From a virus: a DNA stretch of 23,105 nucleotides. The position numbers were made by a program, and so were the translations under genes. Below the pieces are notes generated by a model, which saw only the letters and a list, made by a program, of their open reading frames with translations, did no database searches and was not told the DNA's origin. Location: the IMG/VR virus record IMGVR_UViG_3300027687_000076, positions 1 through 23,105 of that record; one strand, 5' to 3'. Below, piece after piece: positions 4,931 through 9,296 of the stretch; positions within the stretch are counted from its first letter, which is position 1; each line of letters starts with the position of its first letter.

Positions 4931-4998
4931 ACAGCGATAGCGAGGGGAGAATAAAAAATGTCTGTTTTAAAACTCATTGGTTTAATCGACAAGGTTGA
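4864..4998 (+). CDS. Possible leader ORF overlapping the regulator gene (44 aa)
   Basis: ATG 4864 has a decent Shine-Dalgarno site (GGGAG 4848-4852) and reads MPKTKIKVSRIITIPYLFTL..., ending at TGA 4996-4998, 41 bp inside the MarR-like gene in another frame. It has a basic N-terminus and a hydrophobic stretch (RIITIPYLFTLVIYS). Its translation would pass over the ribosome-binding site of the regulator. It may be a real small gene, a leader peptide or chance. Confidence 0.3.
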   Translation: MPKTKIKVSRIITIPYLFTLVIYSDSEGRIKNVCFKTHWFNRQG

Positions 4999-5290
4999 TG
5001 AATATATAGGACACCACTCATTCAGAGACGTAAAGGTGCTTGCGTATCTTTACCAGTCTGAACGCAGTGTTATTTACTTTCAATCCATAATCAAAGACCT
5101 AGAACTATCAGCAGTCGGAGTCACCAGAAGCCTAAAAGTATTAAGTGACCGCGACATGATTACATTATCAATGGACACCGAAGACACACGAAAGAAAAGC
5201 GTATCAATTACCGACAAGGGAAACGCACTTAAACTACACATAATAGAAATATTGGGGGACACACATGGCAGTAAGAGTAAATCACAATAA
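4958..5290 (+). CDS. MarR-like winged-helix transcriptional regulator (110 aa)
   Basis: ATG 4958 has one of the strongest Shine-Dalgarno sites in the window (AGGGGAG about 4942-4948). The protein fits a winged-helix DNA-binding domain. Helices lie at about 3-50; a helix-turn-helix at about 55-88 (YFQSIIKDLELSAVGVTRSL, then KVLSDRDMITL); a wing at about 88-103 (DTEDTRKKSVSITDKG). The D-x-R-K-K-x-x-x-x-T-x-K-G pattern is characteristic of MarR family wings. It is a little shorter than typical MarR proteins (about 140 aa). It overlaps the integrase gene by 26 bp, and tandem dyads lie upstream. Next to an integrase, it is the best candidate for the lysogeny regulator, either repressor or activator. 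There is no CI-like or Cro-like gene in the window. Confidence 0.7.
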   Translation: MSVLKLIGLIDKVDEYIGHHSFRDVKVLAYLYQSERSVIYFQSIIKDLELSAVGVTRSLKVLSDRDMITLSMDTEDTRKKSVSITDKGNALKLHIIEILGDTHGSKSKSQ

Positions 5291-6302
5291 GTTCCTAGCC
5301 GACTTCATGTTGGACGGGAGGCGTATCAAAAGACAGTTCGACACCGAGATAGATGCACAAGCGTTTGAAATAGAGACACGTAGGCAGCACCAGTATGGGA
5401 AACCTCTTGAGGCAGTCGAAAAGGCAAAGGCATACACGCTAGGTCACATGATGGATAAAACCTTTGTTAAATACTGGCAGAATAAGCCTACCGAAGAACT
5501 AAGTCTAGTAAACATGAAGATTATTGAGAAGTTCTTCCTTCCTATGACACCTTTGGACTCCATCACGACTGAGAAGATTGATGATTTCATAATGCACCTG
5601 CAAAACAAGGGCAACAAGCCATCGACCGTCAACAGTAAGCTATCGACGCTTAGTAAGTGCATGCGATTTGCTAACGACCGCGGTTACCTCAAGGTAAAAC
5701 CTAAGATTGACCGCCCAAAGGTTGGAAACAATGCACGATTGAGGTTTTTTAACATAGAGGACGAGAATCTTATAATAGATTTACTTTCGGAGCATGGTAA
5801 GAAAGACTTCAAAAACTTCTTCATCTTCTTACTATACACAGGGATAAGACCGAGCGAAGCACGAGGCATACATAGCAGGGATATACGAAAAGATGACCAG
5901 CTAGAATGGGTTGTTGATGTGAAAATGGTTAAAGATGTATCAGGCACGACGTTACCGCGCACCCTGCCTTTAACTGAAAAAGCATATAGTGCCTACCAAA
6001 AGTTAGACAATGGTTCTGTTTATCCTTTTGCTAAGTTTACCAAGCAAGAGATAAGAAAGAACTGGGATTGGGTTAGAGCAGCTTCAGGACACACTCACGT
6101 TGCTGATAAAGACTTTGTGTTCTACCTTACACGTCACACCTGTGCATCACGAATGGTGCAACGAGGTATAAGCCTAGCGGTTGTTCAGAAGTGGATGGGT
6201 CATAGGACAATTCAAACCACTTTGATATACGCTAAGTTAATACCGACTAATTTACTTGACGCTCGAGACGCACTTAATTCAATAAAAGAAAACACTTTAT
6301 GA
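5265..6302 (+). CDS. int: Tyrosine recombinase / phage integrase (345 aa)
   Basis: This is a site-specific tyrosine recombinase, expected to catalyse attP x attB integration. The N-terminal part (1-55, VNHNKFLADFMLDGRRIKRQ) resembles an arm-binding domain. About 60-150 is the SAM-like core-binding domain (STVNSKLSTLSKCMRFAND). About 165-335 is catalytic. Visible catalytic residues are R195 (TGIRPSEAR), R290 in YLTRHTCASR, H313 (WMGHRTIQTT) and nucleophile Y322 (LIYAKL). The first position of the HxxR box is Tyr287 rather than His, a substitution seen in some integrases. Length is normal. The gene overlaps the regulator gene by 26 bp and the next ORF by 4 bp, and lies about 400 bp before the tRNA-derived att-like site. 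Confidence 0.95.
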   Translation: MAVRVNHNKFLADFMLDGRRIKRQFDTEIDAQAFEIETRRQHQYGKPLEAVEKAKAYTLGHMMDKTFVKYWQNKPTEELSLVNMKIIEKFFLPMTPLDSITTEKIDDFIMHLQNKGNKPSTVNSKLSTLSKCMRFANDRGYLKVKPKIDRPKVGNNARLRFFNIEDENLIIDLLSEHGKKDFKNFFIFLLYTGIRPSEARGIHSRDIRKDDQLEWVVDVKMVKDVSGTTLPRTLPLTEKAYSAYQKLDNGSVYPFAKFTKQEIRKNWDWVRAASGHTHVADKDFVFYLTRHTCASRMVQRGISLAVVQKWMGHRTIQTTLIYAKLIPTNLLDARDALNSIKENTL

Positions 6303-6391
6303 GAACATCCACAATACTACTGAAGCAAGCGACCAAACGCAAGACACCTAAAACCAAACCTAAAACTAAAAATGCCAGCAAAAAAAAGTAA
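6299..6391 (+). CDS. Possible tiny basic peptide (30 aa)
   Basis: ATG 6299 overlaps the integrase stop (ATGA). The peptide is MRTSTILLKQATKRKTPKTK and a KTKNASKKK end: very basic, with low-complexity Lys/Thr/Pro. It overlaps the next gene (6372) by 20 bp in a different frame. It could be a DNA-binding or excisionase-like peptide by position, but it is too short to assign. Coding status is uncertain. Confidence 0.35.
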   Translation: MRTSTILLKQATKRKTPKTKPKTKNASKKK

Positions 6392-6578
6392 GTCACTATA
6401 CGCACCTGATACCGAAAGTATTTTAACACGAGGACTAAATTCTATGACCAAGGCTTGTGATGCCTTGACAAAACAAAACGAGACTCTTAATAACGACATC
6501 GAGGGTTTAAAGTCTAAGATTAAACGACTCAGTGAACGAGTATTAATTGATAAAGGTAACGACAGTGACGTTAACTAA
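6372..6578 (+). CDS. Hypothetical coiled-coil protein (68 aa)
   Basis: ATG 6372 gives MPAKKSKSLYAPDTESILTR followed by a helical segment with heptad-like hydrophobics (ACDALTKQNETLNNDIEGLK, then SKIKRLSERVLIDKG), ending DSDVN. The N-terminus is basic and the middle a likely coiled coil. No excisionase-type winged helix is recognisable. It is the last gene before the att-like region and RNA polymerase, so a role in integration control is possible but unsupported by sequence. Confidence 0.55.
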   Translation: MPAKKSKSLYAPDTESILTRGLNSMTKACDALTKQNETLNNDIEGLKSKIKRLSERVLIDKGNDSDVN

Positions 6579-6597
6579 TATAAAAATACAAAAGTTA

Positions 6598-6630
6598 GGG
6601 ACAAACCACGGACAAATCACAGACAATCAT
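6598..6630 (+). repeat. Three direct repeats of GGACAAAYCA, 11-bp period
   Basis: GGACA/AGACA cores at 6599, 6610 and 6621 are spaced exactly 11 bp, placing them on one face of the helix. The segment 6607-6625 matches, inverted, the element at 960-978 (17 of 19). These are candidate arm-type sites for the integrase or an excisionase, or an operator. A -10-like TATAAA lies just upstream at 6579-6584. Confidence 0.6.
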
Positions 6631-6712
6631 GACCTATTTTTGTCCCTGCTTTTACTTTCTGGTCATGGACTTTTAAGGTATAAGTCCTTGAATTAAATAG
6701 AGAATACCAAAT

Positions 6713-6756
6713 GCGCTCGTAGCTCAGCTGGATAGAGCACTAGACTACGAATTTAG
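6713..6756 (+). pseudogene. 5' half of tRNA-Arg(ACG), att core
   Basis: The first 44 nt of a tRNA are present: acceptor strand GCGCTCG (6713-6719), D-stem GCTC/GAGC (6722-6725, 6735-6738), anticodon stem CTAGA/TTTAG (6740-6744, 6752-6756) around the loop CTACGAA with anticodon ACG (6747-6749). The variable loop, T-arm and 3' acceptor strand are absent; AT-rich unrelated DNA follows. It cannot be a working tRNA. The anticodon stem and 7-nt loop form the usual integrase core geometry (inverted 5-mers around a 7-bp overlap). Its presence suggests integration into a host tRNA-Arg(ACG) gene. Confidence 0.8.
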
Positions 6757-6818
6757 ATAAATTAATAACACATCTGAAACTATATAAAACTCACCCTATA
6801 CACTAGTCCAAATATCTA

Positions 6819-6832
6819 TTTCATTTATGAAA
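6819..6832 (+). promoter_or_regulatory. TTTC-N6-GAAA dyad upstream of the RNA polymerase gene
   Basis: TTTCATTTATGAAA is a palindrome (TTTCAT-TT-ATGAAA) of the same TTTC-N6-GAAA form as the two dyads before the MarR-like gene, and lies 40 bp before the RNA polymerase ATG. A single such match can arise by chance in AT-rich DNA, so the link rests on position. Confidence 0.35.
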
Positions 6833-6872
6833 GTAATTTGATTTTGGTGTCCGTATAGGGACAATCACACTT

Positions 6873-9296
6873 ATGCTAAATCAACAAAAACTTAACGCTG
6901 ATATGTCAGAAATTGGCAAGGGTCGCTATCGAAATAAAATCGAAAGTGCCAAGGCGCGTGAAGTTGAGGGAGAGACAAAGTATGGGCAGAGATTGATGCG
7001 AGGAGCGTTACCACTACTAGCGAAAGCCATTGAAGATTCTTTTATCACATGGAAGAAACCAAAGACTAAAGCTAGGTGGCAGATTGATATTGTAAAAGCT
7101 AAAGCACCTGTGATTGCGTTCATAACAATCAAGGCAGTCATCGATAGCATTACCTTGCGTAAACCAATGAGCAGCGTAGCTGCCTTTGTAGGCGCACGAG
7201 TTGAAGATGAAATAAGATGTTCGTTCTTAGTTAAGAACAACGAAAAGGGTGAAGGCATCATCTTGGGTGCAAAGCGTAAACGAGGTGGTCTTGGTAATAC
7301 AAGGCGGCACATCAGACGTTCAATGCTCCATGAAACCGAGAAGGGTTTGATGCCAGAATGGGAGGGGTGGAGACAACGAGATAGATTAAGTTGTGGTCTA
7401 AACTTAGTAGAGATACTCAGGGTAAGCACTGGGTTAATAGAATATATCTATGTTCAAGATGGGAAGCGCAAGAAGAAGTCCCCAACTAGATATGTAACGG
7501 CAACGAAAGAAACACTACAATGGATTGAGGATTATAACACCGACCGTGAACTCCTCGAACCGTTCTGGCTACCAAGCGTGGAACTCCCAACACCTTGGCA
7601 GTCTGTTTGGGAAGGTGGGTACAGCTCCTCCGACACCTATCTTCCCAAACTTCCATTTATCAAGTCCACTAACATGGATTACATTCGTTCCATCAAAGGT
7701 AAGCTAGAAGAACCGATGGAAGCGTGTAACCTTATTCAGAATACACCTTGGACAGTGAACGATAATGTTTACAAGGTGATGGACTGGGCTTGGAAAAACA
7801 ATGTGCAAGTGGGTGAGCTACCTAGCCGAGAGGATGAAGAACTACCAGATATTCCTAGTGACTTTCATGACAACCCTGATAGTAATACTACATGGAGAAG
7901 GACTGCCGCAGGTATCTATGGTCGCAACCTATCGACACGTAGTAAGAGACTGCTCACGTCCAAGACTTTATATGTAGCAGAGAAACTAAAAGGTAATCGT
8001 TTCTTCTATCCTAGTAACTGTGACTTCAGAGGTAGGGTTTACAACGTCCCTGCTTTCCTTGGTATTCAAGGCACTGATATGTCACGAGGACTCTTGCAGT
8101 TCTATCGGTCTTGTAAGATTAAGAACGAGAAGGATGCACGTTGGTTAGCCATACACGGAGCGAACACCTTTGGTAATGATAAGGTATCACTTGATGACCG
8201 CGTTAAGTGGGCTTACGACTTTGGCAAGATAGCAATCGACATTGCCCAGAATCCTACCGACCACCTACTGTGGACAGAGGCAGCCAGTCCTTGGCAGTTC
8301 TTAGCGTGGTGCTTTGAGTGGCGTAACTACATGGTCAACAAGAAGATAGATAGCTTCTTACCTGTGAACATGGATGCCACCAACAATGGATTGCAGATAC
8401 TTTCAATGCTCACTCGTGATGAGTATGGGATGCAAGCAACTAATGTTCTCCCAACCAGCACACCTGCTGACATCTACCGAGTGGTATCCGACAAGGTTGT
8501 TGAGCAACTTAAGATAGACCTGCAACAAGGCGTTGCGTTCAGTCAGCAATGGTTAGACTTTGGGTTAGACCGCAAGACAACTAAGCGTCCTGTCATGTGT
8601 TACAGCTATGGTCTTACACCATACTCTAATCGTGCCTACATCAATGACTGGTATGACGAGACTATTCATAAAGATAAAACCAAGCCACGCTTTGACGAAG
8701 GCATAAAGTATAAAGCCATCCACTATCTATCTACACTTGTATGGGATGGTATTGAGTCAGTCCTAGATAGACCTAAGCAGTGTATGCAGTGGTTCCAAGA
8801 ATGTTCTAGACTCATCTCAGAAAAACAACGTCCAATGAGTTGGGTAAGTCCAAGTGGTTTCCCAGTGCATCAAGAGTATCACAAGTTACACGAGAAAAAG
8901 ATAAGCACTTGGATTGGTGGCACTGCTACACACGTAACCTTCTATGATACCAAGGATGAAATCTCATCAAGGAAACAATCCAATGGTGTCAGTCCTAACT
9001 TTGTTCATGCACTAGATGGCGCTGCGTTACACAAGTCAGTCATTCAGTGTAACCAACAAGAAGACATATACGATTTCAGTATGGTGCATGACAGCTATGG
9101 AACGCACTCAACGAACTGCGACAAGATGAGTAAGGTTATACGCAATGTCTTCTATGAGATGTTTAGTGTTGACCTCCTCCAAGATTGGAAACATCAATTA
9201 GAAGTTAACAACATCGACATAACATTCCCAGACCCGCCTGCCTACGGGAACGCTGACCTCACACAACTCAAGGACAGTGAATACTTTTTTAGCTAA
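6873..9296 (+). CDS. T7-type single-subunit DNA-directed RNA polymerase (807 aa)
   Basis: It transcribes the replication and virion genes from phage promoters. Motif A is NMDATNNGLQILSML with catalytic D501 (T7 D537). Motif B is RKTTKRPVMCYSYG with K571, R572 and Y579 (T7 K631, R632, Y639). Motif C is MVHDSYGT with D740 (T7 D812). The C-terminus ends SEYFFS, near the T7 aromatic end. It is about 75 residues shorter than T7 RNA polymerase, mostly N-terminal, so the promoter-recognition part is diverged. ATG 6873 lacks a Shine-Dalgarno site; its leader (GGGACAATCACACTT) resembles the att arm repeats. No phage promoter sequence could be identified downstream. It follows the att-like region, as in integrase-bearing T7-like phages. 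Confidence 0.97.
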   Translation: MLNQQKLNADMSEIGKGRYRNKIESAKAREVEGETKYGQRLMRGALPLLAKAIEDSFITWKKPKTKARWQIDIVKAKAPVIAFITIKAVIDSITLRKPMSSVAAFVGARVEDEIRCSFLVKNNEKGEGIILGAKRKRGGLGNTRRHIRRSMLHETEKGLMPEWEGWRQRDRLSCGLNLVEILRVSTGLIEYIYVQDGKRKKKSPTRYVTATKETLQWIEDYNTDRELLEPFWLPSVELPTPWQSVWEGGYSSSDTYLPKLPFIKSTNMDYIRSIKGKLEEPMEACNLIQNTPWTVNDNVYKVMDWAWKNNVQVGELPSREDEELPDIPSDFHDNPDSNTTWRRTAAGIYGRNLSTRSKRLLTSKTLYVAEKLKGNRFFYPSNCDFRGRVYNVPAFLGIQGTDMSRGLLQFYRSCKIKNEKDARWLAIHGANTFGNDKVSLDDRVKWAYDFGKIAIDIAQNPTDHLLWTEAASPWQFLAWCFEWRNYMVNKKIDSFLPVNMDATNNGLQILSMLTRDEYGMQATNVLPTSTPADIYRVVSDKVVEQLKIDLQQGVAFSQQWLDFGLDRKTTKRPVMCYSYGLTPYSNRAYINDWYDETIHKDKTKPRFDEGIKYKAIHYLSTLVWDGIESVLDRPKQCMQWFQECSRLISEKQRPMSWVSPSGFPVHQEYHKLHEKKISTWIGGTATHVTFYDTKDEISSRKQSNGVSPNFVHALDGAALHKSVIQCNQQEDIYDFSMVHDSYGTHSTNCDKMSKVIRNVFYEMFSVDLLQDWKHQLEVNNIDITFPDPPAYGNADLTQLKDSEYFFS

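What the first reader, a model, noticed from the sequence alone, without database searches (positions are those of the whole stretch)
6579..6872. Probable attP that carries the 5' half, not the 3' half, of tRNA-Arg(ACG)
The phage has nt 1-44 of the tRNA, up to the anticodon stem, with flanking GGACA-type arm repeats. Most tRNA-integrating elements carry the 3' part and leave the host promoter in place. Here integration in the anticodon loop would replace the host tRNA's promoter and 5' half with phage DNA. A TATAAG (6679-6684) about 30 bp before the tRNA start could serve as its new promoter. It predicts the host attB and that the tRNA stays functional in the lysogen, with its transcription set by the phage.
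Basis: partly seen in the sequence, partly recalled or inferred. Interest (0 to 1): 0.65.

Follow-up and report, generated by a model that had tools for sequence, protein, structure and literature searches.

The report
Phage attachment site with half tRNA
A marine T7-like phage that probably infects SAR116 bacteria carries the front half of a host tRNA-Arg gene as its landing site, so inserting into the host would cut the tRNA off from its own promoter and rebuild it behind phage DNA; this arrangement is already known from cyanophages and turns out to be common in this phage group.

Summary
Window 6713-6756 is nt 1-44 of tRNA-Arg(ACG), complete through the anticodon arm and with no 3' half. 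It lies between a tyrosine integrase and a T7-like RNA polymerase and is flanked by GGACAA arm-type repeats. It is an attP. The matching attB is the tRNA-Arg(ACG) gene of SAR116 (Puniceispirillales): about 60 of 121 genomes of that order match 43/44. The one mismatch is just past the anticodon loop (phage T, host C, nt 41), so the exact 44-mer search found nothing. Sister phages carry a tRNA-Leu(TAA) 5' half in the same place, and it matches the same host order 42/42.

No lysogen of this phage was found, but the predicted junctions exist. Two SAR116 genomes have gpt - truncated tRNA-Arg 5' half - insert - complete tRNA-Arg. Ca. P. marinum IMCC1322 carries a 39.9-kb T7-like prophage bounded by a tRNA-Lys(TTT) 5' half and the only complete tRNA-Lys(TTT) found, which now follows phage DNA.

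5'-half attP sites are already known and tested in T7-like cyanophages, so this is a new member of a known kind. New here are the SAR116 host, the chromosomal junctions, and a survey showing at least five 5'/3' switches. The proposed TATAAG promoter is unsupported.

The parts
6713..6756 (+). 5' half of tRNA-Arg(ACG), nt 1-44: the identity block O of attP
   Evidence: Sequence; SAR116 match 43/44; structural scan; Rfam 19.4 bits
6745..6751 (+). Anticodon loop CTACGAA, the inferred 7-bp overlap (crossover) region
   Evidence: Contiguous identity with the host ends at nt 40, one base past the loop; in G998 and G925 the 5'-half copies diverge from the complete tRNA one and two bases past the loop
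6753..6753 (+). Phage T where the SAR116 host has C (nt 41)
6599..6646 (.). Left (P) arm repeats: GGACAAACCAC, GGACAAATCAC, inverted TTTGTCCC
   Evidence: kept in sister phages
6856..6864 (.). Right (P') arm repeat TAGGGACAA
   Evidence: kept in sister phages
6794..6860 (.). 8-bp inverted repeat CCCTATAC (6794-6801) / GTATAGGG (6853-6860) between O and the RNA polymerase gene; role unknown
   Evidence: Fold; kept in sister phages
5265..6302 (+). Tyrosine integrase, 345 aa
   Evidence: PF00589 E=1.3e-18; catalytic-type residues invariant in alignment A1
4958..5290 (+). MarR/SarA-like regulator upstream of int
   Evidence: PF22381 E=1.7e-6; MarR-int-RNAP order is shared with P-SSP7, pelagiphages and roseophages
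6372..6578 (+). Small coiled-coil ORF between int and attP
   Evidence: weak leucine-zipper match; kept in sister loci
6873..9296 (+). T7-like single-subunit RNA polymerase, directly downstream of attP
   Evidence: PF00940 E=5e-94

Best explanation
6579-6872 is the attP of an integrase-bearing autographivirus of SAR116 (Puniceispirillales). The integrase binds GGACAA arms on both sides and exchanges strands in the anticodon loop of tRNA-Arg(ACG). Because attP carries tRNA nt 1-44, recombination yields (i) attR: phage DNA + phage-borne 5' half + host 3' half = a complete tRNA-Arg that now follows phage DNA, and (ii) attL: host promoter + truncated 5' half + phage DNA leading into the phage RNA polymerase gene. 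Shown here: the half tRNA, the arm repeats, the integrase gene, the host tRNA and its lineage, the tRNA re-formed in silico, and junctions of this kind in SAR116 chromosomes. Inferred: that this phage's integrase acts at this gene and binds those repeats, that the crossover is in the anticodon loop, and that phage-side sequence drives the rebuilt tRNA.
For: Half tRNA beside int and between arm repeats. Host: about 60 of 121 Puniceispirillales genomes match 43/44; two other taxa searched gave none. Independent support for the host: the sisters' tRNA-Leu(TAA) 5' half matches the same order 42/42 and sits at the same place between conserved flanks. ARAGORN finds tRNA-Arg(ACG) in attB and attR but not in attP or attL. 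Chromosomal junctions: G925 has gpt - 5' half - 424-aa integrase on one contig and element DNA - complete tRNA-Arg on another; G998 has gpt - 5' half - about 3 kb - complete tRNA-Arg; G966 and G921 show gpt directly next to the complete tRNA. IMCC1322: a 39.9-kb prophage with integrase and T7-like RNAP, tRNA-Lys(TTT) 5' half at 424,554 and complete tRNA-Lys at 384,686, the only one found by two searches (genome identified by its length 2,753,527 bp, PMC3368413). Precedent: S-TIP37 and P-SSP7 integrate at tRNA-Leu and cyanophage attP motifs are the first half of that gene; the paper reports that integrase and attP are both required (PMC8776855).
Against: No integrated copy of this phage was found: among 136 Puniceispirillales genomes only IMCC1322 has a related RNAP, at 28% identity. 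No genome matched all 44 nt. No promoter was recognised upstream of the tRNA half. Cyanophages with this layout integrate but stable lysogens were not found (PMC8776855), so 'lysogen' may be the wrong word. The elements in G925 and G998 are not T7-like phages, so they show the site and geometry, not this phage.
Confidence: 0.9

Rival explanations
1. The half tRNA is a relic of past integration or imprecise excision and is not used any more.
For: No integrated copy of this phage was found, and one base (nt 41) differs from the host.
Against: Arms, 5' half and integrase reading frame are all intact and kept in sister phages, and the sisters carry a different tRNA half with exact 42/42 host identity at the same place. 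A decaying relic would not be expected to keep 40 contiguous identical bases or to be replaced by another precise half.
Confidence: 0.06
2. The fragment makes a tRNA-derived RNA that acts in trans, for example as a decoy, primer or regulator, and is not an attachment site.
For: The 160-nt stretch 6713-6872 folds somewhat better than shuffles (z = -2.1), and an 8-bp inverted repeat lies downstream.
Against: Position beside int and arm repeats, and the use of different tRNAs and different halves in relatives with the same integrase family, fit attP and not an isotype-specific RNA.
Confidence: 0.02
3. The attP is real but the host is another alphaproteobacterium.
For: The anticodon-arm core occurs in other alphaproteobacteria too.
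Against: In the genomes read out beyond the two Puniceispirillales ones the acceptor strand differs, giving 2-5 mismatches in 44. The sisters' tRNA-Leu half also matches Puniceispirillales.
Confidence: 0.08

Closest known systems
T7-like cyanophages P-SSP7 and S-TIP37 (integrase plus tRNA-Leu attP; PMC8776855)
   Same: Regulator-int-5'-half-RNAP order in P-SSP7; attP matches the first half of a host tRNA on the int strand; integration shown by PCR, with integrase and attP reported as required.
   Different: Host (cyanobacteria versus SAR116), tRNA (Leu versus Arg) and a very distant integrase; no experiment exists for this phage.
Autographivirus prophage of Ca. Puniceispirillum marinum IMCC1322 at tRNA-Lys(TTT), found here
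   Same: Same host order, tyrosine integrase, T7-like RNAP and 5'-half geometry with the complete tRNA behind phage DNA.
   Different: Its attP lies upstream of int rather than between int and RNAP; RNAP is only 28% identical; the tRNA is Lys.
pTN3-like archaeal integrases (Cossu et al. 2017, as described in PMC8371274)
   Same: attB is the 5' half of a tRNA and the rebuilt tRNA is expressed from element DNA; the review says this is seldom met in bacteria.
   Different: Archaeal suicidal integrases whose gene is split on integration; here int stays whole.
tRNA-dependent lysogeny of actinobacteriophages (PMC10865867)
   Same: The phage makes good the loss of an essential tRNA at its attachment site. 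Many relatives of this integrase carry a full replacement tRNA beside a short core.
   Different: This phage carries half a tRNA and rebuilds the gene; it has no complete tRNA in the window.
Ayaqvirus S45C18 (AP013544), nearest named phage by structural and replication genes
   Same: DNA polymerase 56%, portal 68%, integrase 39% identical.
   Different: No tRNA half was found downstream of its integrase (L158 appears to be the same phage).

Membership tests
Integrase-bearing autographivirus with 5'-half tRNA attP (P-SSP7 / S-TIP37 kind) | Tyrosine integrase next to a T7-like RNA polymerase | tested here: met
   PF00589 and PF00940
Integrase-bearing autographivirus with 5'-half tRNA attP (P-SSP7 / S-TIP37 kind) | About 40 nt of the first half of a host tRNA downstream of int | tested here: met
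   6713-6756; 40 contiguous nt, 43/44 in SAR116
Integrase-bearing autographivirus with 5'-half tRNA attP (P-SSP7 / S-TIP37 kind) | Integration into the matching tRNA shown | not testable with these tools
   Only chromosomal junctions of other elements at the same gene and of a related prophage at tRNA-Lys
Tyrosine-recombinase tRNA attachment site, anticodon-loop class | Identity block ends at the anticodon loop; arm-type repeats on both sides | tested here: met
   Identity ends at nt 40; arms
Conventional 3'-half tRNA attP | attP carries the 3' half and the host promoter is kept | tested here: not met
   No T arm or acceptor 3' strand
tRNA-dependent lysogeny | Complete phage tRNA of the same isotype plus a short core of about 10 bp | tested here: not met
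   No tRNA in the 23.1-kb window; identity block is 40 nt. The window may be a fragment of the phage genome.

The most novel reading that the evidence does not exclude
Integration swaps promoters both ways: the host's tRNA promoter, cut off from its tRNA, would read through the truncated half straight into the phage RNA polymerase gene, so host growth state would set the activity of the integrated phage, while phage DNA sets supply of an essential tRNA. In the integrase family surveyed, half or complete tRNAs downstream of int mostly lie on the int-RNAP strand, which would put RNAP downstream of the host tRNA promoter.
Probability: 0.2. Interest if true: 0.65.

Novelty: new member of a known kind. 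Interest (0 to 1): 0.42.

Why it matters
It links a family of uncultured marine T7-like phages to SAR116, an abundant surface-ocean group, through two independent tRNA matches. It shows in real chromosomes, including that of a cultured strain, that an essential tRNA can be left with phage or element DNA as its 5' flank. A recent review calls this seldom met in bacteria (PMC8371274); in the integrase family surveyed here the 5'-half arrangement appears several times over.

Tried and rejected
Exact 44-mer in genome contigs: none, because of the single base difference at nt 41. Bacteroidota and Gammaproteobacteria as hosts: none. A Verrucomicrobia host was considered from the weak Shine-Dalgarno signals and Mizuno et al. 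2013 but could not be reached with the tools and became unnecessary. A prophage of this phage in 136 Puniceispirillales genomes: none by RNAP. Sigma-70 promoter and terminator around attP: none beyond chance. AAACTCACCCTATACACTAG as a repeated phage promoter: it occurs once in the window. The idea that the half carried is set by the orientation of the tRNA relative to the integrase was examined on a tree: side of O needs 3 changes, half needs 5. In the window's supported 15-row clade every half lies on the int side, but the numbers are too small for a firm claim.

Full report
WHAT IS THERE. The window is a 23.1-kb virus record, a T7-like phage: single-subunit RNA polymerase, T7-type SSB, helicase-primase, family A DNA polymerase, exonuclease and head-tail connector. 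Its nearest named relative is Ayaqvirus S45C18. A MarR/SarA-like gene (4958-5290), a tyrosine integrase (5265-6302) and a small coiled-coil ORF (6372-6578) precede the 294-bp gap named in the finding; RNA polymerase begins at 6873. In the gap, 6713-6756 is nt 1-44 of tRNA-Arg(ACG) including the whole anticodon arm; nothing of the 3' half follows. GGACAA repeats lie on both sides.

RELATIVES. Viral contigs L005, L006 and L025 carry the same tRNA-Arg half. L007-L011, with 83-87% identical integrases, carry a tRNA-Leu(TAA) 5' half at the same place. Aligning the window with L008-L011 shows the flanks 82-100% identical, the 60 bp before the tRNA about 60%, and the tRNA half 51%. So the tRNA half and its upstream stretch appear to have been exchanged between otherwise similar attP regions.

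HOST. An exact search with the 44-mer in genome contigs gave nothing. Allowing mismatches in a 37-nt core, 296 Bacteroidota and 369 Gammaproteobacteria gave none at two mismatches, while 64 of 240 Alphaproteobacteria matched at three. Of 13 of these read out, only two matched the full 44 nt with one difference, G784 and G888. G888 is one contig of 2,753,527 bp, the published length of Ca. Puniceispirillum marinum IMCC1322, SAR116 (PMC3368413); the identification rests on that length. In 121 genomes of its order, 80 matched within three mismatches and about 60 with one, always C for the phage's T at nt 41. The sisters' tRNA-Leu half matches 42 contiguous nt in 11 of 61 genomes of the same order. 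Two different tRNAs thus point to one host order.

JUNCTIONS. Joining phage DNA through O nt 40 to the IMCC1322 remainder gives tRNA-Arg(ACG); the reciprocal junction and attP give none. The same products exist in genomes. In G966 and G921 a phosphoribosyltransferase gene (gpt) lies directly upstream of tRNA-Arg(ACG). In G925 the gpt side is followed by a 5' half ending CTACGAAT and then a 424-aa integrase, and a second contig carries the complete tRNA preceded by DNA with the same GGGGGTAC repeats. In G998 the gpt side is followed by a 5' half ending CTACGAA, about 3 kb with a TPR-methyltransferase gene, and the complete tRNA. These elements are not T7-like, so they establish the site and the geometry, not this phage.

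A T7-LIKE PROPHAGE. A search of 136 genomes of the order with the window's RNA polymerase found one match, in IMCC1322. Beside it lie an integrase and, after a host gene that reads like coaD, a tRNA-Lys(TTT) 5' half at 424,554; 39.87 kb away at 384,686 is the complete tRNA-Lys(TTT), preceded by phage genes. The two copies share a few bases upstream of the tRNA plus the tRNA through the anticodon stem. Two searches found no other tRNA-Lys(TTT) in the genome. In this viable strain the tRNA therefore depends on phage-side sequence upstream, unless transcription comes from further off.

SURVEY. In the integrase family, the region after int was scanned for tRNA halves in about 100 loci; in most of the 44 checked, RNA polymerase follows within 270-670 bp. 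Four states occur: 5' half on the int strand (window, sisters, L018 group, L169, L171, L179, L192, L194, L196, P-SSP7); 5' half on the other strand (HTVC131P, HTVC121P, tRNA-Cys); 3' half on either strand; and a complete tRNA next to a short core, including LUZ100 and HTVC119P where it lies upstream of int. On a tree of 54 integrases the 5'/3' label needs at least five changes. The tree is a quick one with some long branches, P-SSP7 above all. In Amorphus and Telmatospirillum the complete tRNA-Leu beside int is followed by a leftover tRNA-Leu 3' half, which fits integration with displacement of the host 5' half.

READING. The best reading is an anticodon-loop attP of the 5'-half kind. [quoted passage not shown] The specific promoter guess, TATAAG, has no support from the scan and is not kept exactly in the sisters.

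NOT SHOWN. No integrated copy of this phage, no integration assay, no transcript. Whether integration leads to stable lysogeny is open; in the cyanophages studied, stable lysogens were not found.

Noticed in passing
G888 (IMCC1322) C1:384686-424554; loci L113-L115: A 39.9-kb T7-like prophage in tRNA-Lys(TTT) with attP upstream of int; the only complete tRNA-Lys(TTT) found in the genome lies at its phage-gene end.
   Followed up: partly
G925 (L105, L106) and G998 (L104): Two elements that are not T7-like, integrated at SAR116 tRNA-Arg(ACG) by the same 5'-half geometry, one with its own 424-aa integrase.
   Followed up: partly
L108-L111 and other SAR116 genomes: A roughly 330-aa integrase gene with TTTGACACAG repeats sits directly 3' of tRNA-Arg(ACG) in many genomes, so the gene seems to be used from both sides.
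   Followed up: no
L026, L030, L035, L127, L163, L170, L198, L200; L041-L043, L050: Relatives carry a complete tRNA-Leu beside a short anticodon core; possible tRNA-dependent lysogeny in T7-like phages.
   Followed up: partly
window 6794-6801 and 6853-6860: Perfect 8-bp inverted repeat CCCTATAC/GTATAGGG before the RNA polymerase gene, kept in sister phages; role unknown.
   Followed up: no
window 6372-6578: Small conserved coiled-coil ORF between int and attP; could be an excision factor, untested.
   Followed up: no
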